From contig JACAVV010000015.1 in NCBI GenBank assembly GCA_024648695.1, positions 62,001 to 126,000 on the forward strand: a DNA stretch of 64,000 nt, written 5' to 3'. This stretch comes from Nitrospina sp. GTDB lineage: Bacteria > Nitrospinota > Nitrospinia > Nitrospinales > JACRGP01. Position numbers and translations under genes: made by a program. The notes below the pieces were generated by a model that searched no databases, was not told the origin of the DNA, and saw only the letters and a program-made list of their open reading frames with translations. The first letter of the stretch is position 1. Every line of letters starts with the position of its first letter. Shown here in pieces: positions 1 to 20,878 of the stretch.

Positions 1-2
1 TG

Positions 3-380: not shown

Positions 381-390
381 TTAGATACAA

Positions 391-433
391 GCATCCCTGC
401 ACTCGCCATTAAAAGGTGGGTGCAGGGAGATGC
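391..433 (+). terminator. Hairpin after first protease gene
   Basis: GCATCCCTGCAC (391-402) pairs with GTGCAGGG plus ATGC (420-433) around a two-base AG bulge, ten bases after the stop codon. No clear T-run follows, so it may be a weak or factor-assisted terminator or a 3' stabilising stem. Confidence 0.4.
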
Positions 434-535
434 TATTGCCTCTCCTATTCATTCCCTCGGCAACATATTCACGTTATTTCCTAATAACTCCTTGCCTTGT
501 CCCTTCCGTCTAAGTAATTAAAAATCAAGTTTCTA

Positions 536-564
536 TTGACATCCATCAGAAATTGACAGATATT
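536..564 (+). promoter_or_regulatory. Candidate sigma-70 promoter of second protease gene
   Basis: TTGACA at 536-541 is followed, after 17 bases, by GATATT at 559-564. A second TTGACA sits at 553-558 inside the spacer, which is odd. The start codon lies about 60 bases downstream, behind a purine-rich GGAGGGAGAGG ribosome binding site. Prediction by motif only. Confidence 0.4.
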
Positions 565-626
565 CATTATATAAAAACATTAACATTCAAAGTATTATAA
601 GGGGTGAGCAATGGAGGGAGAGGTCC

Positions 627-6285: not shown

Positions 6286-7479
6286 ATGCCGCTTTTCAAC
6301 TGGTTTCAAAAAGTAAGCGCAACCGTTCGGACGATGAGCCTCTATCTCCCTCTCAATCAGGGATGGACGGGGACGCGCAACTACGAAAAAATGGCCCGTG
6401 AGGGCTACACTCAAAACAGCGTCCTCTATGCGTGCATTCGCGAATTGGCCGAAGCTTCGGCTTCCGTGCCCTGGACTCTGTTTCGAAAACGAGCCGACGG
6501 CCAGCGCGAAGAGCTCCGCGACCACGCCCTCCTCAAACTCATCGAACGGCCCAACCCGATTCAGGGTCGATTCGAATTCGTGGAATCTTCCCTGGCCTAT
6601 TTGTACTTGTCCGGCAACCTGTATATCGAAGCGGTCGGACCCGGCGAAGGGGATGCTGGAGTTTCGGCGCAACCGCGCGAACTCTATCCACTGCGCCCCG
6701 ACCGAATGACCATCCTGCCCGATCCGGTACATCTCATCGGCGGCTATGAGTATCAGGCCGCAGGCGAAACGGTGCGTTTCAGCAAAGACCGCATCTTTCA
6801 CCTCAAACTGTTCAATCCGCTCGACGACTGGTACGGTCTCTCGCCGGTGCAGGTTGCCGCTCTCGCTATCGACAAAATGAACGTCGGGGACCAATGGAAC
6901 GCCGCTCTTTTGCAAAACGCCGCAGTTCCTTCCGGGGCGCTGATTTCTAAACAACGTCTCACCGACGACCAGTTCCACCGACTGGAACAGGAGATGCGAG
7001 ACAACTATCAGGGCGCTCTCAATGCCCGCAAGCCCCTCCTTCTGGAAGGCGACCTAGACTGGAAAGAATTATCCGTTTCTCCAAAGGACATGGATTGGGT
7101 GGAAGGACTCAAACTCAGCGCCATGCAAATCGCGCAAATCTATAACGTCCCGCCGGAACTCATCGGACTTCAAACCGCCACGTTTCAAAACCGTAAAGAA
7201 GCGCGCAAAGCGCTGTACACAGAAGTCGTCCTACCGGCCCTCAAACGCTTGCGCGACGGATTCAACAACTGGTTGACGCCACGGTTTGGACGCGACCTCT
7301 TGCTGGATCTGGACACCGACCGTGTGGAAGCCTTGTCTGAAGACCGCGAACTGGTCTGGAGGCGTGCGCGCGAAAGCCATTTCTTGACGCTCAATGAAAA
7401 ACGCCAATTGGTGGGATACGGCCCGGTGCCTGGAGGAGACGCGCTGATTCCGCCCGATACACGAGGTGATAATGAATAA
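6286..7479 (+). CDS. Phage portal protein, HK97 family
   Basis: Portal proteins form the dodecameric DNA gate at one capsid vertex. Family signatures visible are NSVLYACIRELAEASASVPW, the HALLKLIERPNP loop, the YLYLSGNLYIE segment, ELYPLRPDRM, DWYGLSPVQVA, a GLKLSAMQIAQIYNVPPELIG helix and a C-terminal LTLNEKRQLVGYGPVPGGD. The 397-residue length is normal. I start at ATG 6286 (MPLFNWFQK) behind CCGGGGAA; codons upstream of it look non-coding. No terminase gene precedes it, which is atypical because terminase normally sits directly upstream. The frame is intact. Confidence 0.92.
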   Translation: MPLFNWFQKVSATVRTMSLYLPLNQGWTGTRNYEKMAREGYTQNSVLYACIRELAEASASVPWTLFRKRADGQREELRDHALLKLIERPNPIQGRFEFVESSLAYLYLSGNLYIEAVGPGEGDAGVSAQPRELYPLRPDRMTILPDPVHLIGGYEYQAAGETVRFSKDRIFHLKLFNPLDDWYGLSPVQVAALAIDKMNVGDQWNAALLQNAAVPSGALISKQRLTDDQFHRLEQEMRDNYQGALNARKPLLLEGDLDWKELSVSPKDMDWVEGLKLSAMQIAQIYNVPPELIGLQTATFQNRKEARKALYTEVVLPALKRLRDGFNNWLTPRFGRDLLLDLDTDRVEALSEDRELVWRRARESHFLTLNEKRQLVGYGPVPGGDALIPPDTRGDNE

Positions 7480-8128
7480 AGAATTTAAGTCATTCCCTTT
7501 CAAGATCCGCGATGTGGAAGCCACTGGGGAATTCCGTGGTTATGCTTCGACGTTCGGAAACGTGGACCATGCCCATGATGTCATCCTGCCGGGTGCCTTT
7601 AAAAAAACCTTGAAGGAAAACAATGGCGGCAAGGTGCCGATTCTCGACCACCACGACTCTACCCGCCAGATCGGCTGGAACCTGGAAGCACGTGAGGATA
7701 AACACGGATTGTGGGTACGAGGTCAACTCGATCTCAATGTCCAGCTTGCCCGCGAACGGCACAGCCTGATGCAAATGGCCTCCCGTGTAGGTGCCCGAAC
7801 GGGTTTGTCAATAGGATTCCAGACGGTACGTGCCGAATCGCCAGGCAAAGCCGCTGGTGTGCGCAATTTGAAAGAATTGAAACTGTTCGAATACAGCATC
7901 GTGGTGTTTCCAATGAACCCGGAAGCGGGCGTGACTACGGTACGTGGCCGTGATGAATGGGTGTCCCAGTTCTTGCGCAAGGAAATGGGCCTCGATGCCG
8001 AGCGCACACGCAAGGCCCGCCATTTTATTCAACACCTGCTCGACCCCAATTTTAATTGTCCCGAAGAGGCCGCTCTGGAACCGGTGGTTCAATCAATGAA
8101 ACAGGTTATCGATACGATCCATTCCTGA
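7472..8128 (+). CDS. Prohead protease, HK97 family (peptidase U35)
   Basis: This maturation protease cleaves the capsid delta domain during head assembly. The 218-residue protein shows GEFRGYASTFGNVDHAHDVILPGAF, catalytic His in LDHHD (about residue 60), Ser in TGLSIGF (about 113) and the Glu of LFEYSIVVFPMNPEA (about 140). I choose ATG 7472, which has GAGGTG just before it and overlaps the portal stop by eight bases. Portal-protease-capsid is the usual order. The C-terminal 60 residues are a helical tail of unknown role. Confidence 0.92.
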   Translation: MNKEFKSFPFKIRDVEATGEFRGYASTFGNVDHAHDVILPGAFKKTLKENNGGKVPILDHHDSTRQIGWNLEAREDKHGLWVRGQLDLNVQLARERHSLMQMASRVGARTGLSIGFQTVRAESPGKAAGVRNLKELKLFEYSIVVFPMNPEAGVTTVRGRDEWVSQFLRKEMGLDAERTRKARHFIQHLLDPNFNCPEEAALEPVVQSMKQVIDTIHS

Positions 8129-8158
8129 ACTTACCTATCCCTTTCCCAAGGAGGAACC

Positions 8159-9346
8159 ATGGAAATTGCAGAAGTCAAAGACACCGTTGAGTCGCTGGGC
8201 CACGCGGTCCAGGAACTCAAACAAAAAAATGACCAGCGCTGGAAAGAAATCCAGGCGAAGGGCAGTGCCGATCCCCTGCTGGAACAGCAGGTCGACCGCT
8301 TGAGCGCCGAGGTTCAGCGTCTTACGGAAATGAAAGAGCGGCTCGAATACGTGGAAACGCGTTTGCAACGACCTGCTTTTCAAAACTCCGGAGATGCCAA
8401 CAACCCGGCAACTGATGAAAAACAGAAAGCGCTTGGCAAATACCTGCGCACCGGCGATTTCAGCGAATGCAAATTGCTGTCTGTGGACGGCGACCCGCAA
8501 GGTGGGTATTGGGTGCATTCAGAAACATCCAACACGGTCATTCGAAAAATCAACGAAACGTCACCCATGCGCGACGTGGCGATGATCGAAACGATCTCTA
8601 CCGACGCTTTGGAAATTCCGGAAGATGTCAATGAAGCCGATGCGGGATGGACCCGCGAGCGGGTTTCTCCTGTGGATACGGCCACACCTAACATCGGCGT
8701 CCGGCGCATTCCGGTGCACGAACTGTATGCCATGCCGAAAGCAACCCAGACGCTTCTGGACGACGCGCGGGTCAATGTGGAGGAATGGCTCGCAGGGAAA
8801 ATTGCAGAAAAAATTTCGCGTCTGGAAAATGATTCCTTCATCAAAGGAGACGGCGTTGGCCAACCGCGCGGAATTCTAACTTACCCAGACGGAACTGGAA
8901 ACCCTGGCGAAATCGAACAAGTGCCTTCGGGTTCTGCAGGTGCGGTGACAGCCGACGGATTGCGCACCTTGTTCTATCGCCTAAAAAGTCCCTACCTCAA
9001 CAATGCGGTATGGTTGATGAAGCGATCGACTCTGGAAGAAATCTCGAAGTTGAAAGATTCCAACAACCAGTACCTCTGGGAACCGGGCCTTGCCCTGGGC
9101 GAACCCCAAACACTCCTGGGTCACCCCATCGGCCGAATGGAAGACATGCCTGCGGTGGCGAACGATTCTCTGTCGATCGCGTTTGGCAATTTCAAACAGG
9201 CTTACACGATTGTGGATCGCGCCGGGTTCCGTGTCTTGCGAGACCCTTACAGCGCCAAACCTTTCGTTTTGTTCTATACCACCAAACGTACCGGAGGCGA
9301 TGTTTCCAATTTCGAAGCCATGGTCCTCCAAAAAATGTCCGCCTAG
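8159..9346 (+). CDS. Major capsid protein, HK97 fold
   Basis: Residues 1-75 form a charged coiled coil (VESLGHAVQELKQKNDQRWKE...), the scaffolding delta domain expected to be removed by the prohead protease. The rest follows the HK97 capsid pattern: GGYWVHSE, MRDVAMIE, GWTRERVSPVDT, KATQTLLDDARVNVEEWLAGKIAEKIS, DSFIKGDGVGQPRGIL, AVWLMKRSTLEEISKLKD, LLGHPI and SIAFGNFKQAYTIVDR. The 395-residue length is typical. AAGGAGGAACC gives an excellent ribosome binding site, as expected for the most abundant virion protein. The frame is intact. Confidence 0.95.
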   Translation: MEIAEVKDTVESLGHAVQELKQKNDQRWKEIQAKGSADPLLEQQVDRLSAEVQRLTEMKERLEYVETRLQRPAFQNSGDANNPATDEKQKALGKYLRTGDFSECKLLSVDGDPQGGYWVHSETSNTVIRKINETSPMRDVAMIETISTDALEIPEDVNEADAGWTRERVSPVDTATPNIGVRRIPVHELYAMPKATQTLLDDARVNVEEWLAGKIAEKISRLENDSFIKGDGVGQPRGILTYPDGTGNPGEIEQVPSGSAGAVTADGLRTLFYRLKSPYLNNAVWLMKRSTLEEISKLKDSNNQYLWEPGLALGEPQTLLGHPIGRMEDMPAVANDSLSIAFGNFKQAYTIVDRAGFRVLRDPYSAKPFVLFYTTKRTGGDVSNFEAMVLQKMSA

Positions 9347-9471
9347 GCAACGCGGCATTTCCATATAAATATTTTTAGGGAGATCCAGGGGGAATAATAA
9401 GTCCAAAGTCCAATCCCATATTCTTCCCCTCATAAATAATGTTGAACTCTTATCAACCGGAGTAAATAAAT

Positions 9472-9849
9472 ATGCGAGATCTAAAAAACAATATCGACTT
9501 GGCTCCGTCCATAGCACCGGCAACGTACAACGCAGACGCCGATGGTACAGGCGTGGACCTGAAAGGATTCATGGCCGCAGTGATAGCCTTCCATCCGGGA
9601 ACCATTACCGATGGAACGCACGCACCCAAAATCCAGGAATCGGATGACGATGTCACTTACACCGATGTCCCTGCAGACGATCAGGAGGGCACCCTGTCCA
9701 ACCTGGCTACCGATACTCTCCAGCGTGTCGGCTACAAAGGAGGAAAACGTTATGTGAAAGCTTTTGTCACCGTTACCCCCGGAGTGACCGGTGGTATCTA
9801 CGCGGCAGAAGTGATCCGTGGGTTGCCGGCCTCTGCACCGGTGGCCTGA
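9472..9849 (+). CDS. Phage head-associated small protein (decoration-like)
   Basis: The 125-residue protein sits between capsid and connector genes. It resembles small proteins known at this position in HK97-type prophages: an N-terminal RDLKNNIDLAPSIAP motif, GTGVDLKGF, IQESDDDVTYTDV, TLQRVGYKGGKRYVKAFVTV and an A/P-rich tail. It is predicted to be mostly beta. A capsid decoration or cement role is inferred from position; no catalytic motif is present. ACCGGAGTAAATAA contains a weak ribosome binding site. Confidence 0.7.
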   Translation: MRDLKNNIDLAPSIAPATYNADADGTGVDLKGFMAAVIAFHPGTITDGTHAPKIQESDDDVTYTDVPADDQEGTLSNLATDTLQRVGYKGGKRYVKAFVTVTPGVTGGIYAAEVIRGLPASAPVA

Positions 9850-9913
9850 CGCTCTGCAATGGAATCAGCCGGGATGCTTTCATCCCGGCTCCACCTATTT
9901 AAGGTATACATTT

Positions 9914-10561
9914 ATGTCCCTGAATTTAAAAACCGCACCGGCCAGCGAGCCTCTGACACTTTCAGAAGTGAAAGACTATCTGCGCATCCAGGACACCCAG
10001 GATGATGCCTTGCTCACGGCTTTGATCACAGCCTCGCGCGAACGGGCCGAAGCTTTCACACGGCGGGTTTGGATCACTCAAACCTGGACGCTTTGGCTGG
10101 ACCGGTTTCCCAAAGAAAAAGCTTCAAGGAAGGGGTGGGAGAGTAACGCGCAATGGATTTCGATCCCCAAACCGCCTTTGCAGTCGGTGGCTTTCCTCAA
10201 AACATATGATGCGACAAATACGGCTACGGAATTCAACCCAGCCCGATACCTGGTGGATAATATTTCTGTTCCCGGCCGCATCGCCTTGAACGAGAGTGAA
10301 ACCTGGCCCGTCGATTTGCGTCCCGTACAATCCATCGAAATCGAATTCACTGCAGGCTACGGTTTGGCAAGCGACGTTCCGGAACCGGTCAGGCAAGGCA
10401 TGCTCCTTTGGATCAAACTGGCCTATGCCAGTAAAGCCCGATTGTTTGAAAAAGATTCCGGAGGGGATTTGCTGGCGATGCATCAACAAATCCTGCCGCC
10501 TATCGTTTGCGATTTGTGGCATGCCTTCGTCGTGCATCCGGCACAGGGAGCGATGGTATGA
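9914..10561 (+). CDS. Head-tail connector protein, phiE125 gp8/HK97 gp6-like
   Basis: The N-terminus LTLSEVKDYLRIQDTQDDALLTALITASRERAEAFTRRVWITQTWTLWLD is the hallmark of the phiE125 gp8 adaptor family, whose ring sits under the portal and connects head to tail. The second half, FTAGYGLASDVPEPVRQGMLLWIKLAY, also fits. I start at ATG 9914; the open frame extends upstream without support. It overlaps the next gene by ATGA at 10558-10561, implying translational coupling. Confidence 0.85.
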   Translation: MSLNLKTAPASEPLTLSEVKDYLRIQDTQDDALLTALITASRERAEAFTRRVWITQTWTLWLDRFPKEKASRKGWESNAQWISIPKPPLQSVAFLKTYDATNTATEFNPARYLVDNISVPGRIALNESETWPVDLRPVQSIEIEFTAGYGLASDVPEPVRQGMLLWIKLAYASKARLFEKDSGGDLLAMHQQILPPIVCDLWHAFVVHPAQGAMV

Positions 10562-11040
10562 GCGATTACTCCGTTGTGGGAAACGCCGTCCGCAATACCT
10601 TGCTGGCGGACAGTTGGATCGCCGATCCGGCCAATGTCAAAACCGTCGAAACCTATTCGCGGGGATATTCCCTGAGGGAATCTGAAGAGAGTCAATACTT
10701 TGGTCCCGAGGAAGCTCCTGCTATCGCCGTCATTCCAAATCCTGCTTCCCGCAAGGGACATGCCATTTCTGCGTCCCGATTGCTGGAACAAGTCAACGTA
10801 GAAGTGGTTGCAGTGACTTTTCATCGGGAGGCCCAGACAGGCATGGCTGTTCAGCACCAGTTTGTAGGCAATATAGAACGGGTCCTGGAAAATCAAAAAA
10901 CCGCTGGCAAGGACCTTGGAATCGGGGCTTTTGTCGATGGATTAGGCACTGCCGACCGAACAACCAAGAACGGCGAGCTGTTTTGTCTGGTGTCCACCAT
11001 CAGGTTTCAGATCGAGCAGGTCATTTCTATTCACGACTAG
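10558..11040 (+). CDS. Phage head-tail joining/tail-terminator-like protein
   Basis: This 160-residue product starts at ATG 10558, overlapping the connector stop. Its position matches stopper or tail-terminator genes, and its size fits a terminator (alpha/beta, TLLADSWIADPANVKTVE...VNVEVVAVTFHREAQTG...TIRFQIEQVISI). The local pattern of an N-terminal helix followed by a central and C-terminal strand is typical of such proteins, but I do not recognise a specific family. The assignment rests mainly on synteny. Confidence 0.55.
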   Translation: MSDYSVVGNAVRNTLLADSWIADPANVKTVETYSRGYSLRESEESQYFGPEEAPAIAVIPNPASRKGHAISASRLLEQVNVEVVAVTFHREAQTGMAVQHQFVGNIERVLENQKTAGKDLGIGAFVDGLGTADRTTKNGELFCLVSTIRFQIEQVISIHD

Positions 11041-11082
11041 TTATGAATTCAGTCACCCAATTTATCGGATCAAATATCAACC

Positions 11083-12129
11083 ATGACCATTAAACGAATC
11101 GCCAAGAGCTGGCGCGGATTTTCCCTGAGTAAAGAACCTTCCTACGGCTCTCCTCAAACCGTCGATACTGCTCTGGATTTTCAGGGTCCTCTGACAACAG
11201 TATCTGGAGCTGAAACCAGTTCCGACCGATCAACGATCTCCGGTTTGTCGGGAGCGGCATCGGAAGAAGTATTGCACTGGCAAGTCGATGGACACCATCG
11301 TCACTTCGCCGATACGCATAATGTGGCGTTGTTTGGAGCATTGGTGTTGGGAAAAGTAGTGAGCCAGCAACCCGATCCGGTCAACGACCCCAATTGGTAT
11401 CGCCACTACATAGAACACAAGATGGAGACCCATGAGCTTCCATCAGTAACTCTTGTGGAATCCGATGGCGCGAATGCAAAGAAGTTTCCTGGCATATTCG
11501 GAAAATCACTCAAAGTTACCGGATGCGCGGGAGAAACCTTGCAAATGGAGGCTCATTTTGGCGGCAGGGGCACGGAGTCTCCCAGCGCCATAGCCTCCCC
11601 ACCGGGAGTTTCTGAATCCCCGTTGAGGTTTGCTGATGTGGATCTGCAACTGGGTGGAACCCTGACAGGTAGCGTGAATTTTGGTGATTTGGTTTTAAGC
11701 GGCTCGCCTTTAATTTTGCGGGATACTCTGGCCGGATTTGATTTCACCCTGAGTAACGAGTCACGCACCATCTATGAAATGGGCGATACCAGCGGAACGG
11801 TCAGCCGGGTCGAACGTGGTGACCGATGGAATACGGAATTGAAAATTTTGTTTAACCGGATCGATACCAGTCATGAAGACCGTTTTCTGAGCGGGGCGGT
11901 CAATCCGTTATTGTTGACAGCAGTCGGTTCCCCCCTTCCCGGAAGCACTGGAACACCTCGTTACCAAATAAAAATATACTTTCCCAAAACCATCTATAGG
12001 GAAACAGTTATAGGCCTGAACGGGCAAATTATTCGGGTGGAAGCGAATCTCGGGATATTGGAAGATCCCGGTTATGGCTCGGTCATTGTCGAAATCCACA
12101 ACAATATCCCTTCTTATCCCGGATTGTAG
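11083..12129 (+). CDS. Probable tail tube protein
   Basis: The 348-residue protein is rich in beta-prone sequence. It starts with GFSLSKEPSYGSPQTVDTALDF, which resembles the N-terminus of siphophage tube proteins of the Phage_tube_2 type. The middle (KVTGCAGETLQMEAHFGGRGTES) and RFADVDLQLGG...FDFTLSNESRTIYEMGD segments also fit tube-like double-barrel proteins. It lies at the tube gene position after the tail-terminator slot. If correct, its multimers form the tail lumen. Confidence is moderate because no single diagnostic motif is visible. Confidence 0.6.
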   Translation: MTIKRIAKSWRGFSLSKEPSYGSPQTVDTALDFQGPLTTVSGAETSSDRSTISGLSGAASEEVLHWQVDGHHRHFADTHNVALFGALVLGKVVSQQPDPVNDPNWYRHYIEHKMETHELPSVTLVESDGANAKKFPGIFGKSLKVTGCAGETLQMEAHFGGRGTESPSAIASPPGVSESPLRFADVDLQLGGTLTGSVNFGDLVLSGSPLILRDTLAGFDFTLSNESRTIYEMGDTSGTVSRVERGDRWNTELKILFNRIDTSHEDRFLSGAVNPLLLTAVGSPLPGSTGTPRYQIKIYFPKTIYRETVIGLNGQIIRVEANLGILEDPGYGSVIVEIHNNIPSYPGL

Positions 12130-12176
12130 GAAGAAAATATTCGGGACCAACTTTTGAATTAAAAGGAATTCGCCTT

Positions 12177-12557
12177 ATGGGAGTAGAGTTTTATTTTCCG
12201 ACAGTCGCGGCACCCTCGGTGCAATGGATCCCGCTAAAACAACCCGAATATCCGGCGCAGGAGCCCGTGGATTACCCAGGGCAACTGATCGCCGAAACAG
12301 CTTCCGGACGCATTTACGTCCAGGACAAGGGACAGCGCGCAGAGCGGTTCATACTAACCTTTGACCGCATTTCCCAGGCGGATCGCAACAATGCCCTGAC
12401 CCTGTTCAATACTGTTAAAAAAGCGGCCAATACTTTCGAGTACCTGGATCGCGACCAGAACCTGCACACCGTCCGCTGGTTGAATGGTTTTGATTTTCAA
12501 TTGGTCATTCTCGATCGCTGGTCCGGCAGTATTGAATTGTTAAAAGAGAATGCCTGA
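12177..12557 (+). CDS. Small phage tail protein (distal-tail-like)
   Basis: The 126-residue protein follows an AAAGGAATTC ribosome binding site. Seen are FPTVAAPSVQWIPLKQPEYPAQEPVDYPGQLIAETASGRIYVQDKG, FILTFDRISQADRNNALTLFNTVKKAANTFEYLDRD and VRWLNGFDFQ. The ASGRxYVQxKG...F.L.F motif is typical of small tail proteins encoded ahead of the hub in lambdoid and Mu-like phages. A structural role between tube and tip is inferred. The frame is intact. Confidence 0.6.
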   Translation: MGVEFYFPTVAAPSVQWIPLKQPEYPAQEPVDYPGQLIAETASGRIYVQDKGQRAERFILTFDRISQADRNNALTLFNTVKKAANTFEYLDRDQNLHTVRWLNGFDFQLVILDRWSGSIELLKENA

Positions 12558-12616
12558 GAGGTTTTTAAAAATCACATCCAGAATCAGTCAAAGAGTCCAT
12601 TAAACGGAGGAGAACC

Positions 12617-12931
12617 ATGATCGACTGGGAACAAATCAAACCGCAGGACCTCAGTTTCAGCTTATGCGGCGACGAAATTTACAGCCATCGGGAAACCGTG
12701 TTCATTCCGGTGAATGTATTGCATCCCGATTGCACCGTGTTGTTCAAGCACGTGGTTGCCTTGAAAGCCACGTTCTATCAGGAATTGCGGCAACTACCCG
12801 ATTGGAGCCAACAGTTAAACAGTATATGCCGGGCGCGTCTGCTGGAAATCATTCGCCTGAAAACCAGGGAACCTCAAATCCCGGTGCAGGACAAAATGGA
12901 ATTGTTTCATGAGGCGCCGAAACGGTTTTGA
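12617..12931 (+). CDS. Hypothetical phage protein (tail chaperone position)
   Basis: The 104-residue protein has GGAGGAGAACC before its ATG. It contains SFSLCGDEIYSHRETVFIPVNVLHPDC and a helical C-terminal half (ATFYQELRQLPDWSQQLNSICRARLLEIIRL). The slot just before the tail tip usually holds tail assembly chaperones, followed by a tape-measure gene. Here the large hub-like gene follows directly. I do not recognise the family and do not assign a function. Confidence 0.55.
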   Translation: MIDWEQIKPQDLSFSLCGDEIYSHRETVFIPVNVLHPDCTVLFKHVVALKATFYQELRQLPDWSQQLNSICRARLLEIIRLKTREPQIPVQDKMELFHEAPKRF

Positions 12932-12989
12932 GTTTTTCCATAACTCGGGTTCCATAATATTTTTTTATCTAATTTGAAATGTTCAATTT

Positions 12990-15900
12990 ATGAGAACTGA
13001 TTTCACGACAGCATTTCAGCAGGCCAAAAATCAAACAGAGCAGGAACCGGTAAACCTGCTAAAAGTCGAATGGCCTGAAATCCGAGGTCTGCCAGCCAAG
13101 ACCCTGCGCCTTTCCGACCGCGCAATCACTGCGGCGGGACAGGACTGGCTGAATTTGATCGATTCCTGGGGAAACCTGGCTTTGGTGGGAAACCGGTTTG
13201 CGTCGCAAAGCGGAACCCCGGTTCGTTGGACCCTGAGCGTTCTCAATGGGGACGCGGATTTGGGAGGGGTGCAGGAGCAAAGTTTCAGTGACCTGTTCAA
13301 TGATTATCCGCCGGAAGCGGCAACTTTTACTTTGTACCAATGGTTTGAAGGAGTGGGATTGGTTGAAGCGGATCTGGCGGCGGTTTTTGTAGGCGCCCCG
13401 GTGGAAGCGGTGGATTACGATGAGGCGTCCTGCCAAATTACGTTGTCCCCTCTGTCTGGTGCTCTTGGCGAAACGGTGATCGGACGCCTTGTCAATACGA
13501 TTGACTACCCAAATGCTCCTAACGTCACTTTGGGCAAAACATTGCCTGTCGTATTGGGTGAAGTGGAAAATTGCCCCGGCCTTCCCGTGCGAATCGCTGA
13601 AGAAACGGAGATCGCGTCAGTGGCCATTCCGGGCGATACTGTATTGAAGGTTCTATCGACCGATGGCTTTCCCTCAGCGGGACAATTGAGCATCGATAAC
13701 AACTTCATATCTTATACCGGAAAAACCTCCACAAGTTTCACGGGATGCCAGACCCTTGGCGAAGGTCCGGATGGATTGGCGCGCACCCACTATAACGGTG
13801 AACGGGTATTGCAAAAGATAAGCGATCATCGCTACGTGTTTTGCGATCCGGCTTACCCCATAGCAAACATCTCCAATGTCCGCATCGCAGGAGATCCCGC
13901 CGACTCCAATGAATACACAGTGGATATTGCCAGCGGCGAAGTGACTTTCAACAATCGTCCGAAAAAAGTGGTGTCCAATGACTCACGTTTCCTGGAAATG
14001 CAGTTTGATGCCGTAGGGGGCCAAAACACCGCAATCAATGCCTCGGCGGCATTCGATCCGGAAGCGGTGACCAGTCACGCCACCATCAACCAGAACAACC
14101 CCAAACTGCAATTGGTGCAGACCAATGATCTGGCGGATCGCGGCGAAATTTTCCGGGTGTTTCTGGCGGTAGAACATTATGAAGAAGAGAAACTGCCCAA
14201 CGATACCCTGGTGGTGTCGCTTCCGGCTGTTGGCGTGTTGGGTGAATTGTCCCGGCCCAATGCCGATGATGCAATCAATGTGGGCGGTACCGTGGACATC
14301 GAACACAATCATCTGGAAACCATCGGTGGCCTGATCGATATCGAACACGAAACCGGCGACACCATTGAGGGCGATACCGATATCGACCATCCTCACACCG
14401 AAGATCTGGATTTCCCACTGATCGACCAGGACCACGTTCATCAAATCACCAGTGACGGGGAAGTGTCGGAAATTCAAAAAGCATCCAGCGGCGTCGATGC
14501 CGAACGCAGTGTCAATCTGGACCGGCCCTTGACACTGATTTTTCCTTCTTTCACCGGGACCGCTTTGCGGGCGGAATACATCATCCAGTTCGATGTGGAT
14601 TTATCCAGCGGACTGGGTTCGATCACTCTGGAAGGAGAAGATATTTACAAGATTCACACGCGCGGCCGGGTGAGAGAGTTTATCAATCAGGTGACGGTTG
14701 AGGACAATCAGGGTACCTCGGCGACAATCAGACGTGCAGGAGGGCTTTCCGCAGGATCGATCACCGTAAAATCCTGCACCCGGCGTTTGATCTTTGAAGC
14801 CCAAACAACCGGCACCGCCGAGTTTACCGGAACATCGACACAGAAAACGGGTGAAGTGTCCGAATTGAATGATGTCAATCGGCCAATGAACAAATCAGGT
14901 GGTGTGAACACCATTCCAGTAGGAACCCAACGCAATCTGGCACGTTCGGGACAGATCAACTCCTATCAGGGCAACCACAACCTGAACACAGGCACCCTGG
15001 AAAAGTCGAGTCGCGCCGTGATCGAGTACTTCGACGTGACCCCTCACGTTTCGGGCTGGGACTGGTTTCAGAATCAGGTCGTGGAAGTGGAGTATGCCGG
15101 AAGTGTCGATGGCCGTTCGAGCTATATCAATCACGTTTTCTTCGAAGTGGAATTTGCTGTCCCGCGTTACCAATACACCGATGAAATCACAGCAGACATC
15201 CAAGGTGTCAAAGACGATTCGCTGGGAACCATAACGGGCACTCCCGACGCACTCATTGAACGTCCGGACCATGTGTTCCACTGGAGCCTGGCGGTTTTAC
15301 TTAACCTGCCCCCAACGGCCATAGACACAGCTTCTTTCGCATCGGCCGGGACTGCCTTCTCTAATGCGGTGTCAGGCGGATTCAAATTCGGGGGAACAAT
15401 CCTCGAAAAACGCACTCTCAAAAGCCTGTGGCAGGAATGGGGACGTGAAAGCCGTGCCGCGTTGTCCTGGGACGCTATCGGAAGAGTGCGTCTGCGGTTT
15501 TTGCCCTTGAATGATTCGGAGGGCGTGGTCCCGGACAAGACCATTGATCTCTCAAACATTCGACGTGATCCCCAAACCGGTCGAAGCCGGGTTTCCGTTC
15601 AGCGTTCTTCCTGGAAAGACATCGTCAATCATGTCGACTTACTTTACCGGTACGATGCCGCCATCGATGGATTCCTGGGCTTGTGCTCAGATTCCGATCT
15701 CACCAGTCAGGACGTCTTTGGCCCGCGGGAAAATCCGGCATTATTCCAATTCCGATGGGTGCGTAATGAAGATATGGCCCGCAACCTTGCCGGCTTTTAC
15801 CTGAAAGAGCGAGCCTTTCCTATGGCCCATCTGGAGGTGGAAGTGTTTCTGGATCAGGTGGAACTGGAGTGCGGAGACAATATTGCTATCACGGCTCCTC

Positions 15901-16547
15901 TTGATAATTTGTCCGCGAGTCTTGCCCGCGTTTTGGATGTCGAACGGGTTTTGGGATCAGGGACTGAAGGGGAGATGGATGCCCTGCGTCTACGCTTGCG
16001 ATTGTATCCGCAGATTGTAATTCGCAAATCACTGATGGAAGGTCCGGTAGAAATTTCTGATGTTCTCTTATTCGTCCTGGTTTCCCTGTCTTCGGAAGAT
16101 GCGGACGTCACCGAGACCATGCACTTTGTGTTCGAGTGGCAATCCTCTGAAACCACCCATGTTGTGGAAGCGCTGGACTTGTTACTGAGCCCCTTTACCG
16201 CTGAGGTGATTGAAGGACAGGAATCGGAGCGATCCCTGATGCAACAACAGGTCGGCCATTCTGTAAGCGCCAGGGAATTGAGCCTGGTTCCGGGGCAGAG
16301 CGGAGGCTATGGAATTCAACCCTACGCCGTTTCCGGCTATGGAGGCAAGGAAACGTTACACAATCCTGTTTTTCGGTTCTGGCTGAGAGAGGTCCCGGAA
16401 GCGGCAGAAACAATGGATTTCCGACTGATTTATGAGGAATTGACATCCATTTATGAGTTTGCCTATACAGGCAATGAATTAACGAGCGGTTACGGCTTGC
16501 AGTCTTATGGGGCGTCCGCATACGGAGGAAGGCAGGCACTTGTATGA
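12990..16547 (+). CDS. Large tail-tip/baseplate hub-like phage protein with His-rich insert
   Basis: The 1185-residue protein is the largest of the block. Residues 1-200 resemble tail-tip proteins (VNLLKVEWPEIRGLPAKTLRLSDRAI..., WTLSVLNGD, FDLYQWFEG-like strand). Residues about 437-487 form an acidic His-rich stretch with DIEHNHLE, DIEHETGD, DIDHPHTED and DQDHVHQ. HxH motifs bind iron in some tail fibres, so metal binding is possible. The region after 800 (KSLWQEWGRESRAALSWDAIGRVRLRFLP) is hub-like. The C-terminus has two copies of a GYG-Q-Y-A-S-YGG motif. It overlaps the next gene by ATGA. No tape-measure gene lies before it. Confidence 0.7.
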   Translation: MRTDFTTAFQQAKNQTEQEPVNLLKVEWPEIRGLPAKTLRLSDRAITAAGQDWLNLIDSWGNLALVGNRFASQSGTPVRWTLSVLNGDADLGGVQEQSFSDLFNDYPPEAATFTLYQWFEGVGLVEADLAAVFVGAPVEAVDYDEASCQITLSPLSGALGETVIGRLVNTIDYPNAPNVTLGKTLPVVLGEVENCPGLPVRIAEETEIASVAIPGDTVLKVLSTDGFPSAGQLSIDNNFISYTGKTSTSFTGCQTLGEGPDGLARTHYNGERVLQKISDHRYVFCDPAYPIANISNVRIAGDPADSNEYTVDIASGEVTFNNRPKKVVSNDSRFLEMQFDAVGGQNTAINASAAFDPEAVTSHATINQNNPKLQLVQTNDLADRGEIFRVFLAVEHYEEEKLPNDTLVVSLPAVGVLGELSRPNADDAINVGGTVDIEHNHLETIGGLIDIEHETGDTIEGDTDIDHPHTEDLDFPLIDQDHVHQITSDGEVSEIQKASSGVDAERSVNLDRPLTLIFPSFTGTALRAEYIIQFDVDLSSGLGSITLEGEDIYKIHTRGRVREFINQVTVEDNQGTSATIRRAGGLSAGSITVKSCTRRLIFEAQTTGTAEFTGTSTQKTGEVSELNDVNRPMNKSGGVNTIPVGTQRNLARSGQINSYQGNHNLNTGTLEKSSRAVIEYFDVTPHVSGWDWFQNQVVEVEYAGSVDGRSSYINHVFFEVEFAVPRYQYTDEITADIQGVKDDSLGTITGTPDALIERPDHVFHWSLAVLLNLPPTAIDTASFASAGTAFSNAVSGGFKFGGTILEKRTLKSLWQEWGRESRAALSWDAIGRVRLRFLPLNDSEGVVPDKTIDLSNIRRDPQTGRSRVSVQRSSWKDIVNHVDLLYRYDAAIDGFLGLCSDSDLTSQDVFGPRENPALFQFRWVRNEDMARNLAGFYLKERAFPMAHLEVEVFLDQVELECGDNIAITAPLDNLSASLARVLDVERVLGSGTEGEMDALRLRLRLYPQIVIRKSLMEGPVEISDVLLFVLVSLSSEDADVTETMHFVFEWQSSETTHVVEALDLLLSPFTAEVIEGQESERSLMQQQVGHSVSARELSLVPGQSGGYGIQPYAVSGYGGKETLHNPVFRFWLREVPEAAETMDFRLIYEELTSIYEFAYTGNELTSGYGLQSYGASAYGGRQALV

Positions 16548-16726
16548 ACCCAACAACCCAACCCCGCCGGGGACCTTTGACACAAGAAAAAATCATCATC
16601 GTTTTGCGTGCTCCCGATGGAAGTGTCAGGGAGCGCGAAGAAATTTTAACTTATAAACATCCGGGAGTGCGCGGCATCAAAACCGTGTATCCCCTGAACA
16701 GGAAGGAGAAAAACCATGATCGTTGA
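16544..16726 (+). CDS. Small phage protein of unknown function
   Basis: The 60-residue product starts with ATG overlapping the hub stop (16544-16547) and ends inside the next gene's first codons (16716-16726), so it is tightly coupled on both sides. Visible are LTQEKIIIVLRAPDGSVREREEIL and a basic C-terminus. No family recognised. The coupling argues it is real. Confidence 0.55.
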   Translation: MNPTTQPRRGPLTQEKIIIVLRAPDGSVREREEILTYKHPGVRGIKTVYPLNRKEKNHDR

Positions 16727-17072
16727 TCCGGGACTGGACCACATTGCCGATCAAATGTCCGCGCAGGTACAACCGGTGATGAGCCATATGGCCATAGGCA
16801 CCGGCACCACCGTCGAAGCGGCCGCCAACACGACTTTGGAATCGGAGGACTTTCGCAAGGCCTTCACGTCCAAAACAAGAACGGGTAGCAAGGTCACCTA
16901 CGTGACCAGTTTCGGCGCCAGTGAGGGGTCCGGAGACATCACCGAACTGGGAATCTTCAATGCCGCGGCCGGAGGAACCATGCTGAGCAGGATCGTGTTT
17001 TCGGCCAAGAATAAAGGGGTGAATGACACCTTGGAGTTCACGGTCGAGCATACCTACCAACGTGCGTCCTGA
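16716..17072 (+). CDS. Phage tail-tip/fibre-associated protein
   Basis: The 118-residue protein resembles a family common downstream of tail hubs in prophages: an N-terminal VDPGLDHIADQMS, MSHMAIGTGTT, AANTTLESEDFRKAFTSKTRTGSKVTYV, then GDITELGIFNAAAGGTMLSR and a C-terminal strand. These are thought to be tail-appendage components. The ribosome binding site GGAAGGAGAAAAACC lies inside the preceding small gene. Confidence 0.6.
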   Translation: MIVDPGLDHIADQMSAQVQPVMSHMAIGTGTTVEAAANTTLESEDFRKAFTSKTRTGSKVTYVTSFGASEGSGDITELGIFNAAAGGTMLSRIVFSAKNKGVNDTLEFTVEHTYQRAS

Positions 17073-17083
17073 GGAGGTGAACG

Positions 17084-17530
17084 ATGCCGACTCAAACAAC
17101 GCGTTTGAATATAGAAAAACAGGATTCCGGAGACACCGACTGGAAGGGCGCCGAGGACAGCTTCAAGGACAAGATGGATGCCGTGTCGGCGAGCTATTTC
17201 AATGTACAGGTCTCCGGCGTGGCCGAGGATGAAGCGGTGGTGCTGGACGGGTTCAAGTTCGATGAGGATGTCGACATTTCGGGCGTGACCCTGTTCGCTC
17301 GTGTTGCCCCTGCCGGTGCCGACCTCACTGTCGATTTTCTGCTAAACGCTACCGAGCAAACGAAAGTGGCGACTCTTGAGGATGGTTCGCAAAAGCAGTA
17401 CACGGCCATTTCCGGCCTGTCCTACACGAGCCTGCAGGAACTGGGGTTGAAAATCAAGTCCGTGGGTTCTACGGAGGCAGGATCGGAAGTGTCGATTGTG
17501 ATTCATTATCACGTATCACCGATTCCGTAA
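17084..17530 (+). CDS. Hypothetical phage tail-appendage protein
   Basis: This 148-residue, acidic, beta-rich protein has a strong GAGGAGGTGAACG ribosome binding site and lies 11 bases after its neighbour. It contains VQVSGVAEDEAVVLDGFKFDEDVDISGV and LTVDFLLNATEQTKVATLEDGS, like small beta-sandwich fibre domains. No specific family recognised; the role is inferred from location. Confidence 0.5.
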   Translation: MPTQTTRLNIEKQDSGDTDWKGAEDSFKDKMDAVSASYFNVQVSGVAEDEAVVLDGFKFDEDVDISGVTLFARVAPAGADLTVDFLLNATEQTKVATLEDGSQKQYTAISGLSYTSLQELGLKIKSVGSTEAGSEVSIVIHYHVSPIP

Positions 17531-17554
17531 TCTTTCAAGCAATAAGGAGATGCT

Positions 17555-17920
17555 ATGAGTATCAGACGTTTTGTGAACAAGGTGATCGATACCAGTCTGG
17601 CTGTGGATACAAACTGGTTCGGCGCGGATGTGGGGAAAACCCTGGGACCTCACCTGGGAAATTTTGGAACCACGGATCCTGAAAAACACACCCTCATGAT
17701 GGTTCTGGACAGTCCGGCTGTGGTGGTCGTGAAATACAAGATGGATGGTCAAACTGTGGAAATGTCGTTGAACGCCGGGCAAACCCTGACGGCAGGTGCT
17801 GTGTATATGTTCGATTTGCTGGTGCCTGAAGGGGCGAGTTACAACATTCAATACACGGGAATCGCCGGACCTCAAAACCTGACGGCGATCATCTCGGCCA
17901 GCGATTCTATCAATGTTTGA
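17555..17920 (+). CDS. Hypothetical phage tail-appendage protein
   Basis: The 121-residue protein follows TAAGGAGATGCT. It reads RRFVNKVIDTSLAVDTNWFGADVGKTLGP, then VVVVKYKMDGQTVEMSLNAGQTLTAGAVYMFDLLVPEGASYNIQY and a hydrophobic end, consistent with a small beta-sandwich. Such genes cluster with fibre genes in tailed phages. Function unknown. Confidence 0.5.
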   Translation: MSIRRFVNKVIDTSLAVDTNWFGADVGKTLGPHLGNFGTTDPEKHTLMMVLDSPAVVVVKYKMDGQTVEMSLNAGQTLTAGAVYMFDLLVPEGASYNIQYTGIAGPQNLTAIISASDSINV

Positions 17921-17937
17921 TAGAAAGGGAGGACGTC

Positions 17938-18183
17938 ATGGCTAAACCGCAAGGCTGGGTGGGCAGGCCCTATTACGATTTTTATGTAGACAACAAAAAT
18001 GGCGACGACGGCAATTCGGGTACGAGTCCGGAGCAGGCCTGGAAATCACTGGCCCCGGTAAATGGAGGATCGTTCCCAGCCGGGACACGCATCGGGTTGA
18101 AGTCGGGGTGTCGGTGGCGCGAAACGCTGACTCCTCCAAGCTCCGGAACCAGCGCGAACCCCATCCTCTTTGGACCCTACTAG
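17938..18183 (+). pseudogene. Right-handed beta-helix (pectate-lyase-type) protein, truncated
   Basis: GGGAGGACGTC precedes ATG 17938. The 81 codons match only the entry motif of secreted or tail-spike beta-helix proteins: YYDFYVDNKNGDDGNSGTSPEQAWKSL, PAGTRIGLKSGCRWRETLTPPSSGTSANPILFGPY. Intact relatives continue with several hundred residues of helix coils. Here TAG at 18181-18183 ends the frame and the sequence after it does not continue as beta-helix. It is probably the remnant of a tail spike or depolymerase. A short functional cap is possible but less likely. Confidence 0.65.
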
Positions 18184-18326: not shown

Positions 18327-19481
18327 ATGAAATTGAAACTTTTGATAATTTGGATGGTTTTGATTCCAACGTGTCTGTTACCACAACACGCGTTTGCTAT
18401 CAGTTATAAAGGAAGTACGGTTGAAGCGACTTCCGACTTTATTGGTCCTGTTGGGCAAACGTCGCCGAATCTGGTGACGGGAACTACTGTGGACGCTACG
18501 GAAGCCCTTTCCCTGGCGGGAACGGAAGCCGTGCGCGGTTGGAAAAATTTTGCTCTCAATGGGAATTTCCGGTTTTGGCATAAAGGCGATTCTCATACGG
18601 ATACCACCAATGATGTGCAATACAAAGGGCCCGATGTGTGGGCTACGGTGCATGCCGGATCCAGCGCCGGACAATCGACGATTTCAAAACAAACGTTCAC
18701 TCTGGGTCAAACCGATGTTCCCGGAGAGCCGGAGTTTTTCTACCGCCACGACCAAACCGTTGGAACCAATGTGGGCTCCCATCCAAAACTTCTTCATCGA
18801 GTGGAAAATGTGCGTGTCTGTGCAGGACAAACCTGTACCATCAGTTTCTACGCCAAGGCAAATGCCTCTTTCTCAATAGATACCGCTCTGGATCAGTATT
18901 TTGGGACCGGCGGATCAGGGACTGTGGATGGCAGTCATAAGACGCATAATTTGAGCACTTCCTGGCAACGCTACACGCACACAGTAACCCCGCCGGGAAT
19001 AACGGGAAAAACTACTGGTCCCAAAAGTTATCTGGAAATTGATTTTGAATTTCCAGACAATGCCACCTTCACCGTCGACATTGCAGGGGTGCAATTGGAA
19101 GCCGGCTCCGTTGCGACAGCCAGGGAGCAACGGCCCTATGCCCTGGAAAAAACCTTGATCGAACGTTTTTTCTGGCGAATTGATTTCGAACTGAAACAAT
19201 TCTTTTTAGTGGGTCAGGCCGTTGGTGCCGGGGATGTGAGGTTTTTTCATTTCTTCTCAACGGAAATGGCTTGTGTCCCAAGTTTGAATTTCAATGGCAA
19301 CTTTAAAATCACCAACACCACCTGGTCGACTGAAACCTCGGGGCCTCTGGAATTGTGGGGCGCGAATACGCGCTTTGCATTCATCAGGGTGCTTGCCGGG
19401 TCGGCAGGCTTGTCGGCTGGGGATGCATCGACCCTGCTTGCTGATGCGGGGTCTTATTTCGAATACGACTGTCAGCTTTAA
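18327..19481 (+). CDS. Tail-fibre-like carbohydrate-binding protein with signal peptide
   Basis: Residues 1-25 are a clear Sec signal peptide (KLKLLIIWMVLIPTCLLPQHAFA). The rest resembles C-terminal modules of phage tail fibres: ALNGNFRFWHKGDSHTD, GPDVWATVHAG, ISFYAKANASFSIDTALDQYFGTGG, STSWQRYTHTVT, TVDIAGVQLEAGSVATAREQRPYALEKTLIERFF. That jelly-roll module usually binds sugars. A signal peptide is unexpected on a virion fibre, which is assembled in the cytoplasm, so this may be a domesticated, secreted version. GGAGATACAAA precedes the ATG. Confidence 0.7.
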   Translation: MKLKLLIIWMVLIPTCLLPQHAFAISYKGSTVEATSDFIGPVGQTSPNLVTGTTVDATEALSLAGTEAVRGWKNFALNGNFRFWHKGDSHTDTTNDVQYKGPDVWATVHAGSSAGQSTISKQTFTLGQTDVPGEPEFFYRHDQTVGTNVGSHPKLLHRVENVRVCAGQTCTISFYAKANASFSIDTALDQYFGTGGSGTVDGSHKTHNLSTSWQRYTHTVTPPGITGKTTGPKSYLEIDFEFPDNATFTVDIAGVQLEAGSVATAREQRPYALEKTLIERFFWRIDFELKQFFLVGQAVGAGDVRFFHFFSTEMACVPSLNFNGNFKITNTTWSTETSGPLELWGANTRFAFIRVLAGSAGLSAGDASTLLADAGSYFEYDCQL

Positions 19482-19509: not shown

Positions 19510-19899
19510 TTAACCGGATGCAGGGAAAAATGATTCAATGGTGGAAAAAACAGACGACATGTCCAAGGGTTTGGAGAGGAACCCATTCATACCCGCTTGA
19601 AAGCAAGCTTCCTTATCTTCGGCGTCATCGTTGGCGCTCATGGCGATAATGCAAGCGGGCTTTGATTTGGAAGGCATTGAGTTGACTTGTTCCAGTTCCC
19701 GGATTTCTTTGCAGGCAGTGATGCCATCCAAAACCGGCATTTGCAGGTCCATGAGGATTAAATCAAAACGCTGGTTTTGAAACTGGTTCACCGCTTCGGC
19801 CCCATTTTCGGCTTTGATAACGGTGTGCCCGCGACGTTCCAATAATCGGGCTACAAGTTGCAAGTTTATGGAAGTGTCGTCAACGACAAGAATATTCAT
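19510..19899 (-). CDS. CheY-like response regulator, receiver domain only
   Basis: The 129-residue protein is a lone receiver domain with the acidic pair in LVVDDTSIN, the phospho-acceptor Asp in LILMDLQMP, Ser in the AMSAND position and Lys in FLSKPL. Such proteins pass a phosphate signal through protein contact rather than DNA binding. I start at ATG 19899, since the open frame upstream lacks domain homology; AGGAAGC precedes it. It lies downstream of the repressor gene on the same strand (82-base gap) and converges on the fibre-like gene. No histidine kinase is nearby. Confidence 0.88.
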   Translation of the reverse strand: MNILVVDDTSINLQLVARLLERRGHTVIKAENGAEAVNQFQNQRFDLILMDLQMPVLDGITACKEIRELEQVNSMPSKSKPACIIAMSANDDAEDKEACFQAGMNGFLSKPLDMSSVFSTIESFFPASG

Positions 19900-19981
19900 T
19901 GCTTCCTGAAAGATGATTATGGTTTGGGTTGTTCGAAAGTCAGTATAAATCCGGATTTGAAAATAGAAAAGGTTTTTCACC

Positions 19982-20878
19982 TTACAATTCTTTCCAGGCC
20001 CCAATGATGCGTCCGACTACTGGGTCCGGGTGTTCTTCCATGTCAAGAATTTGAATTTGGGAGGTGGGATTGATTGGACGCAGAATCATGAGCTTTTTTT
20101 GTATTTCCACATATTTTGCGGTGAGTCCCTGCTCATGAAAGATTGCGTACATTTTGTTTTTCTGAATACGTTTGTCATCGCGGTCGATAACCACGATGTC
20201 GCCGGAGTGGAGCATGGGTTCCATGGAATCGCCGTCCACTCTGCTGGCTACAAGGTTATTGCGTTTGCCTGCGGAACGTACATGAAGCAGGACATAGTCT
20301 TTTACCGAATCATCCTGAATGATGGGTTCGCCAGCGGCAATGTTGGAATCGGTGAGCGGTATCGACACATAATCCTGGTTATGTAAAGTGTCCGGTTTGT
20401 GGATGCTATGGGGCACGACGATTTTAAATTCGGGAATGGAAGTTGTCGGGGCCTCCCCATTATTGAACAAATCAGAAACGGGAATGCCCAATGTGGTGGC
20501 GGCTTTGTGCAGGCATTCTTGAGACAGGGCGAGGGTGCCGTTTTCGAATTGTTTCAGAACCCGTTCTTCAATGGAGAGTTGTTGCGCGAAATCTTTTAAG
20601 GACCAGCCCTTCCTTTTTCGAAATAATTTGAGTCTGCGGACCCAGGATTTTATCCATGTGGAGGGTGGAAACTCTCCTGTTACAAGCCATAAAAAGTCTA
20701 CCTGAAAATGCTGGGCGATCTTTAACATGGACTCGCTATCGGGGAGCGATTTTCGGTGTTTCCACTTTTTTACGGTTTCGTATTTGAGCCCAATAGTCGA
20801 GCAAAAATCTGTCAAATCCTCCTGATCCCGAAGGAAGGCGATCCGATCTAAAGCATTGATTAATTGGATATTTTTCAT
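19982..20878 (-). CDS. LexA/CI-type repressor with two HTH domains and S24 peptidase
   Basis: Residues about 5-68 form a CI-repressor-type HTH (LTDFCSTIGLKYETVKKWKHRKSLPDSESMLKIAQHF). Residues about 82-138 form a second, XRE-type HTH (FRKRKGWSLKDFAQQLSIEERVLKQFENG). Residues about 170-298 are an S24 self-cleavage domain with Ser218 in DGDSMEP, Lys255 in LTAKYVE and an Ala-Gly cleavage bond at about 182-183. Such repressors hold lysogeny and are inactivated by RecA-stimulated self-cleavage. Two HTH domains in one chain are unusual. It is transcribed away from the SMC-like gene, across an intergenic region with palindromic operator candidates. Confidence 0.88.
   Translation of the reverse strand: MKNIQLINALDRIAFLRDQEDLTDFCSTIGLKYETVKKWKHRKSLPDSESMLKIAQHFQVDFLWLVTGEFPPSTWIKSWVRRLKLFRKRKGWSLKDFAQQLSIEERVLKQFENGTLALSQECLHKAATTLGIPVSDLFNNGEAPTTSIPEFKIVVPHSIHKPDTLHNQDYVSIPLTDSNIAAGEPIIQDDSVKDYVLLHVRSAGKRNNLVASRVDGDSMEPMLHSGDIVVIDRDDKRIQKNKMYAIFHEQGLTAKYVEIQKKLMILRPINPTSQIQILDMEEHPDPVVGRIIGAWKEL

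What the first reader, a model, noticed from the sequence alone, without database searches (positions are those of the whole stretch)
6286..18183. Intact phage head and tail genes without recognisable terminase, tape-measure or lysis genes
Portal, protease, capsid, connector, tube-like, hub-like and fibre genes run in one direction with coupled starts and open frames. The packaging ATPase, tape-measure and lysis genes normally found with them are not seen, and the only recombinase is a pseudogene. Open frames kept in a non-mobile set suggest selection for a particle: a gene transfer agent, a contractile-free delivery particle or a capsid-like compartment. Simple recent prophage decay is the alternative.
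Basis: partly seen in the sequence, partly recalled or inferred. Interest (0 to 1): 0.72.

Follow-up and report, generated by a model that had tools for sequence, protein, structure and literature searches.

The report
Phage-derived DNA-packaging particle in Nitrospinales
These relatives of marine nitrite-oxidising bacteria carry an old, host-tamed set of virus genes, inherited from parent to offspring since before their families split and kept intact by selection, which most likely builds particles that package and move the cell's own DNA (a gene transfer agent), a kind of system for which no report in this phylum was found.

Summary
The head and tail genes at 6286-18183 are real, but the missing terminase is only a local absence. 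An intact terminase lies elsewhere in the same genome (contig C28), 2 kb from dnaA. In relatives across the order Nitrospinales the whole cluster (candidate small terminase, large terminase, portal, protease, capsid, connectors, tube, chaperones, short tape measure, hub, self-cleaving repressor) sits beside dnaA; terminase is divergent to dnaA in 26 of 26 genomes where both lie on one stretch. The head-gene tree matches the species tree in 16 of 17 splits. Cluster genes are under strong purifying selection (omega 0.07-0.14; RpoB 0.058). The capsid clade is confined to Nitrospinales; its nearest solved relative is the Rhodobacter GTA, but a joint clade is rejected (AU p 0.01). Best reading: an independently domesticated, vertically inherited gene-transfer-agent-like system. 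In this genome it is split between two loci and has lost tape measure and chaperones; another family has also lost the tail tube from the cluster while keeping head, terminase and hub. Recent prophage decay is refuted for the lineage; late loss of function in this one genome is not excluded. Particles, packaged DNA and transfer are untested.

The parts
6286..7479 (+). portal protein
   Evidence: PF04860 E 2.6e-81; phmmer to RcGTA portal Rcc01684 E 3e-71
7472..8128 (+). S78 prohead protease
   Evidence: PF04586 E 2.3e-28
8159..9346 (+). HK97-fold major capsid protein
   Evidence: PF05065 E 1.8e-81; order-wide profile hits RcGTA capsid Rcc01687 E 1e-91
9472..9849 (+). small conserved protein between capsid and connector
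   Evidence: phrog_5707 E 4.9e-25; 40-68% identity in relatives
9911..10561 (+). head-tail connector (gp6-like adaptor)
   Evidence: PF05135 E 1.4e-6, phrog_442 E 4e-21
10558..11040 (+). tail completion/terminator-like protein (g6; role inferred from position)
   Evidence: no convincing family hit; 36-43% identity in f1/f2 relatives, same position
11083..12129 (+). tail tube protein (inferred)
   Evidence: weak PF18906 hit (E 0.1); profile A4 finds a full-length copy in 20 genomes
12177..12557 (+). tail-tube/distal-tail fold protein (g8)
   Evidence: AlphaFold model pLDDT 83; Foldseek top matches are phage baseplate and tube proteins, E 2e-3 and weaker
12617..12931 (+). small tail protein before the hub (g9)
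   Evidence: 25-35% identity, same place in 17 relatives
12990..16547 (+). tail hub/tip protein, 1185 aa
   Evidence: phrog_22827 E 5e-8; 34-41% identity to hubs in relatives
16716..17072 (+). fibre-base-like protein
   Evidence: phrog_5417 E 9e-20, phrog_4176 tail fibre
17084..17530 (+). conserved post-hub protein (g13)
   Evidence: 31-42% identity in f2/f3 relatives at same place
17555..17920 (+). small post-hub protein, unknown
   Evidence: open frame only
17941..18183 (+). truncated beta-helix fibre N-terminus, probable pseudogene
   Evidence: only weak hydrolase/baseplate hits; truncation inferred from the sequence
18327..19481 (+). tail/head-spike-fibre-like protein with signal-peptide-like N-terminus
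   Evidence: phrog_4492 E 5e-45; NCBIfam GTA_spike_fiber E 5e-7, 30.5 bits, below its cut-off of 36
19510..19956 (-). receiver-domain protein
   Evidence: PF00072 E 1.8e-28; same place in relatives
19982..20878 (-). CI/LexA-type repressor with intact self-cleavage motif
   Evidence: PF00717 E 7e-17 and HTH; Ala-Gly site, Ser and Lys invariant in 9 genomes of three families
21074..23329 (+). Rad50/SbcC-like protein next to the repressor (possible downstream border)
   Evidence: weak Rad50/RecF hits, phrog_77 SbcC-like; adjacent to the repressor in G022 and G001

Best explanation
This is the structural half of a domesticated, vertically inherited gene-transfer-agent-like system of the order Nitrospinales. 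A siphovirus related to Azospirillum phage Cd and, more remotely, to the ancestor of the Rhodobacter GTA was fixed beside dnaA before families f1, f2 and f3 split. In this genome the packaging module (candidate small terminase, large terminase) lies beside dnaA, while portal, protease, capsid, connector, tube, hub, fibre and repressor genes lie at the window's locus. Proposed mechanism: the S24 repressor is cleaved when RecA is activated by DNA damage; the terminase packs non-specifically chosen chromosomal DNA into small heads; the short tail or hub delivers it to neighbours. Shown here: gene content, intact terminase and repressor motifs, vertical descent, purifying selection, no integrase at the locus. 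Inferred: repressor target, DNA packaging, release and transfer.
For: Capsid, one clade member per genome at 57-73% identity, in 27 of 61 related genomes, terminase in 30, co-occurring at p 6e-12; repressor co-occurs with terminase at p 4e-9 (the p values ignore relatedness). In all 26 genomes where both could be seen on one stretch, terminase is 0.9-2.2 kb from and divergent to dnaA, including this genome. The TerL+portal+protease+capsid tree shares 16/17 splits with RpoB+DnaA and 15/17 with RpoB alone; at most 3 in 1000 label shuffles. Omega 0.07-0.14 for 12 cluster genes; close-pair capsid omega 0.02-0.08 with dS broadly like housekeeping genes. About 98 stops expected in this genome's copy under neutrality, none seen. 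Nearest solved capsid and portal are RcGTA; one f1 relative has an RcGTA-type hub. Found in Nitrospinales only: 0 of 13 other genomes of the class. Repressor self-cleavage residues invariant.
Against: No experiment on particles, DNA content or transfer exists. This genome lacks tape measure and chaperones, which a normal siphovirus tail needs, and one fibre gene looks truncated. Only 15 of 28 high-quality genomes have the capsid, so the system is dispensable. Genomes are mostly drafts. TerL alone gives a poorly resolved tree (11/17 splits, conflicts unsupported). Lysis genes in this genome were not identified.
Confidence: 0.7

Rival explanations
1. In this genome the system is a late-stage remnant: the lineage once had a working GTA-like particle, but after the cluster split and the tape measure and chaperones were lost, the remaining genes are only beginning to decay.
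For: Tape measure and chaperones absent genome-wide; truncated beta-helix gene at 17941-18183; G031 keeps only a terminase remnant, G017 has no capsid and a shortened repressor, G033 keeps a lone capsid, so loss happens in the order.
Against: Every structural gene from portal to hub, both terminase genes at the other locus and the repressor are open; codon positions 1+2 evolve several-fold slower than position 3 on this genome's own branch (capsid 0.177 vs 0.897, portal 0.140 vs 0.784); about 98 stops expected under neutrality, none seen. f3 genomes also lack tape measure, chaperone and tube at the cluster yet keep intact head genes.
Confidence: 0.17
2. A domesticated particle whose job is not DNA transfer: a capsid-like compartment, a killing particle or a defence device.
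For: Tail parts are progressively lost while head and hub stay; fibre-like proteins with signal-peptide-like starts suggest an unusual role for some parts; one genome keeps only a capsid.
Against: The large terminase is retained almost exactly where the capsid is (26 of 27 capsid genomes), with Walker and nuclease motifs in this genome, plus portal and head-tail connector; a cargo or killing particle would not need a DNA-packaging motor.
Confidence: 0.1
3. Ordinary prophage or mobile phage in decay, recently acquired.
For: Gene content is that of a siphovirus head-tail module; a tRNA lies 0.55 kb upstream; related capsids occur in IMG/VR contigs.
Against: Host-congruent tree, fixed site beside dnaA in three families, no integrase at the locus, no tRNA-derived repeat; the IMG/VR contigs inside the clade are short pieces nested among genome copies, those inspected holding the same cluster.
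Confidence: 0.03

Closest known systems
Rhodobacter capsulatus GTA and RcGTA-like elements (Rhodogtaviriformidae)
   Same: Homologous head genes (nearest solved capsid and portal are RcGTA's) in the order terminase, portal, protease, capsid; short tape measure in relatives; one relative (G002) with an NlpC/P60 gene and an RcGTA-type hub; vertical inheritance, genes over more than one locus.
   Different: Different phylum; the capsid clade lies among phages apart from RcGTA, and a joint clade is rejected (AU p 0.01); most members have another tail tip; site beside dnaA; CI/LexA-type repressor at the end of the cluster; tail-reduced forms in two families.
Azospirillum phage Cd and related siphophages
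   Same: Nearest isolated phage by capsid (46% identity), with terminase, portal, protease and capsid in the same order.
   Different: A 62 kb phage genome, not a host-inherited locus.
VSH-1 (Brachyspira), Dd1 (Desulfovibrio), VTA (Methanococcus) GTAs
   Same: GTAs outside Alphaproteobacteria; a divided genome is described for VSH-1 (reference cited in PMC11841831).
   Different: Called genetically distinct from alphaproteobacterial GTAs in that review; no sequence comparison with them was made here.

Membership tests
Gene transfer agent (definition in PMC9662315) | caudoviricete-derived proteins forming caudovirion-like particles | tested here: met
   By protein similarity, which the definition accepts: portal, protease, capsid, terminase; particles not seen
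Gene transfer agent (definition in PMC9662315) | mostly random host DNA inside the particles | not testable with these tools
   needs purified particles
Gene transfer agent (definition in PMC9662315) | genome fully endogenised, often over several loci | tested here: met
   fixed beside dnaA in three families; terminase on another contig from the head genes in this genome and in G003, 6 kb or more apart in G013 and G015
Gene transfer agent (definition in PMC9662315) | genome not or not fully packaged because the head is too small | tested here: inconclusive
   head size unknown; the split over two loci in this genome makes it unlikely that one DNA piece carries the whole set
Gene transfer agent (definition in PMC9662315) | vertical inheritance, host-congruent phylogeny | tested here: met
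   16/17 splits shared over 20 genomes
Gene transfer agent (definition in PMC9662315) | delivery of DNA to other cells | not testable with these tools
   needs a transfer assay
Rhodogtaviriformidae (RcGTA-like) | structural genes share exclusive ancestry with RcGTA | tested here: not met
   capsid only: Nitrospinales lie with phage Cd and viral contigs, joint clade with RcGTA rejected, AU p 0.0102
Temperate prophage | integrase, excision sites and replication genes with the structural genes | tested here: not met
   no integrase hit on contig C3, no tRNA repeat in the window; no replication genes recognised among the cluster's parts

The most novel reading that the evidence does not exclude
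Nitrospinales evolved gene transfer agents independently, anchored beside dnaA, and part of the order has gone on to tail-tube-less, tape-measure-less particles (head plus hub) that still package DNA: a tail-reduced class of GTA, of which this genome is an intermediate with tube but no tape measure.
Probability: 0.4. Interest if true: 0.85.

Novelty: new variant of a known kind. Interest (0 to 1): 0.76.

Why it matters
Experimentally known GTAs are few, and the papers consulted describe RcGTA-like elements only in Alphaproteobacteria. An ancient, order-wide, separately domesticated system in Nitrospinota, a phylum of marine nitrite oxidisers, would show that this kind of siphovirus was tamed more than once, give a route for gene exchange in these hard-to-grow bacteria, and offer a natural series of tail reduction that shows which particle parts selection keeps. 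IMG/VR files fragments of it as viruses, so virus counts for these hosts may be affected. It is directly testable: particle preparations from cultured Nitrospinales can be sequenced.

Tried and rejected
PF03354 terminase search in this genome gave nothing; the terminase was found only with a profile from relatives. Prophage with tRNA att sites: no repeat. Membership in the RcGTA clade: rejected on the capsid. A tape measure elsewhere in the genome: none found. Hub N-terminus structure: model too poor to use (pLDDT 52), not searched. TerL, this hub, the tube profile and the connector had no convincing PDB relative by sequence. Papers linking GTAs with Nitrospina or Nitrospinota: two unrelated hits for the first, none for the second; prophage papers that mention Nitrospina were listed but not read. 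Pairwise dN/dS with f1 relatives has dS near or at saturation, so tree-based omega, codon-position branch lengths and a stop-codon simulation were used instead.
Full report
WHAT IS THERE. The region 6286-18183 holds co-directional open frames for portal, S78 protease, HK97 capsid, a phrog_5707 protein, a gp6-like connector, a completion-like protein, a 348-aa tube-like protein, two small tail proteins, an 1185-aa hub and small fibre genes, followed by a fibre-like protein and, on the other strand, a receiver protein and a CI/LexA-type repressor. No integrase hit lies on contig C3 and the tRNA-Ala 0.55 kb upstream has no repeated 3' end in the window.

THE MISSING GENES. The window is G000:C3:62001-126000 of a 4.2 Mb, 56-contig genome, 97% complete. 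A Pfam terminase model (PF03354) finds nothing in it. But fetching the capsid locus from related genomes showed a ~530-aa gene upstream of portal there; it is a terminase large subunit (phrog_38, E 2.7e-111). A profile of seven of these finds one intact copy in this genome, on another contig, C28:1940-3550(-), E 3.9e-268, phrog_38 E 2.5e-104. It lies 2.0 kb from dnaA, divergent, with gyrB and gyrA beyond, and keeps Walker A (AAPRGHAKST), DDLE and nuclease motifs. Upstream of it lie an open candidate small terminase (L054:3433-3921, 28-41% identical to the gene in the same place in relatives; assigned by position only), a phrog_436 protein and a predicted membrane protein. The tape measure (169-389 aa in relatives, with a tape-measure-like C-terminus) and the tail chaperone are not found in this genome. 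Relatives in some genera also have an M15 endolysin beside dnaA; this genome has one weak PF08291 hit on C38.

ORDER-WIDE CONSERVATION. Record titles in the named collection place the closest relatives in Nitrospinota/Nitrospina. Among 61 genomes of the order, 27 have the capsid, 30 the terminase and 30 the repressor, in nearly the same genomes (p 6e-12 for terminase-capsid and 4e-9 for terminase-repressor, relatedness ignored). Nothing is found in 13 genomes from the rest of the class. In all 26 genomes where terminase and dnaA could be seen on one stretch, they lie 0.9-2.2 kb apart and divergent. This holds in three families (f1, f2, f3). G031 retains only a terminase fragment at the same site, and G017 terminase plus a shortened repressor, so loss explains at least some absences.

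VERTICAL INHERITANCE. Over 20 genomes the concatenated terminase+portal+protease+capsid tree shares 16 of 17 splits with RpoB+DnaA, the one difference having 69% support; 15 of 17 with RpoB alone; label shuffles never exceed 3. Portal+protease+capsid alone also give 16 of 17. Terminase alone gives 11 of 17, with unsupported conflicts.

SELECTION. One-ratio omega is 0.07-0.14 for 12 cluster genes against 0.058 (RpoB) and 0.076 (DnaA). In close pairs capsid omega is 0.02-0.08 and dS is broadly similar to that of housekeeping genes, as expected for equal divergence times. On this genome's own branch codon positions 1+2 evolve about five-fold slower than position 3 for capsid and portal, and three-fold slower for terminase. 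Under neutral evolution about 98 stop codons would be expected in 12 genes; none is present. For genes with few f1 relatives that branch includes older history, so this figure is approximate.

ORIGIN. Capsid and portal hit RcGTA best among solved structures, and one f1 relative (G002) has an RcGTA-type hub (E 2.9e-52) next to an NlpC/P60 gene. In a capsid tree the Nitrospinales form one clade (SH-aLRT 99) whose neighbours are a viral contig and a group with Azospirillum phage Cd; RcGTA lies in another supported group, and a joint clade is rejected (p-AU 0.0102). So the system is like RcGTA but is best read as a separate domestication. IMG/VR contigs that fall inside the clade are short metagenome pieces nested among the genome copies; those inspected carry the same cluster.

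TAIL REDUCTION. Several f2 genomes have the full set. This genome (f1) keeps tube and completion protein but no tape measure or chaperones. In f3 genomes G006 (one contig), G013, G015 and G021 no tube is found genome-wide although terminase and head genes are intact; G009 lacks it at the cluster and has a divergent one on another contig. G006 has one tape-measure-profile hit far from the cluster, inside a 1018-aa frame. The protein at 12177-12557, kept in f3 too, is predicted to have a tail-tube/distal-tail-like fold (pLDDT 83; Foldseek E 2e-3 at best). A very short tail made of this protein and the hub is therefore possible; this is inference.

REGULATION. The repressor has the Ala-Gly cleavage site, Ser and Lys expected of LexA/CI-type self-cleaving repressors (general knowledge of that family), invariant in nine genomes of three families. 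DNA-damage induction is inferred from this, not shown.

VERDICT. A domesticated, vertically inherited phage-derived system is well supported. Of the GTA definition in PMC9662315, three features testable from sequence (protein ancestry, endogenised genome, host-congruent descent) are met; head capacity is inconclusive and the two functional features need experiments. No report of a GTA in Nitrospina or Nitrospinota was found in the held library, which lacks most subscription papers. The main open question for this genome is whether the particle still works without a tape measure.

Noticed in passing
L050:6929-8128 (G033): A lone intact capsid gene of the same clade (57% identity), with no other cluster gene nearby and no terminase found in the genome, close to glycan-type genes.
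   Followed up: partly
L059:10439-11179 (G031): Truncated terminase remnant beside dnaA in a single-contig genome: a footprint of loss.
   Followed up: yes
L029:13280-14008, L035:12433-13203, L031:9774-10160, L033: Small zinc-ribbon-like ORFs on the opposite strand sit inside the cluster, near the tape measure gene, in several f2 genomes.
   Followed up: no
window 18327-19481; L024:16329-18048: Fibre-like or unassigned genes after the hub begin with signal-peptide-like sequences, odd for virion parts.
   Followed up: no
L168-L179, L186: IMG/VR contigs filed as viruses that fall in the Nitrospinales capsid clade or carry the same cluster.
   Followed up: partly
L114-L123: A separate group of alphaproteobacterial MAG capsids (about 45-53% identity) that may be another inherited particle system.
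   Followed up: no
L021 (G002): An f1 relative has an RcGTA-type tail tip (NlpC/P60, RcGTA-like hub) with the same head genes: possible module exchange at the tail.
   Followed up: partly
window 1-2135: Apparent tandem trypsin-like secreted proteases, with a further copy just upstream of the window (L052:16849-18000); not checked against a family library.
   Followed up: no
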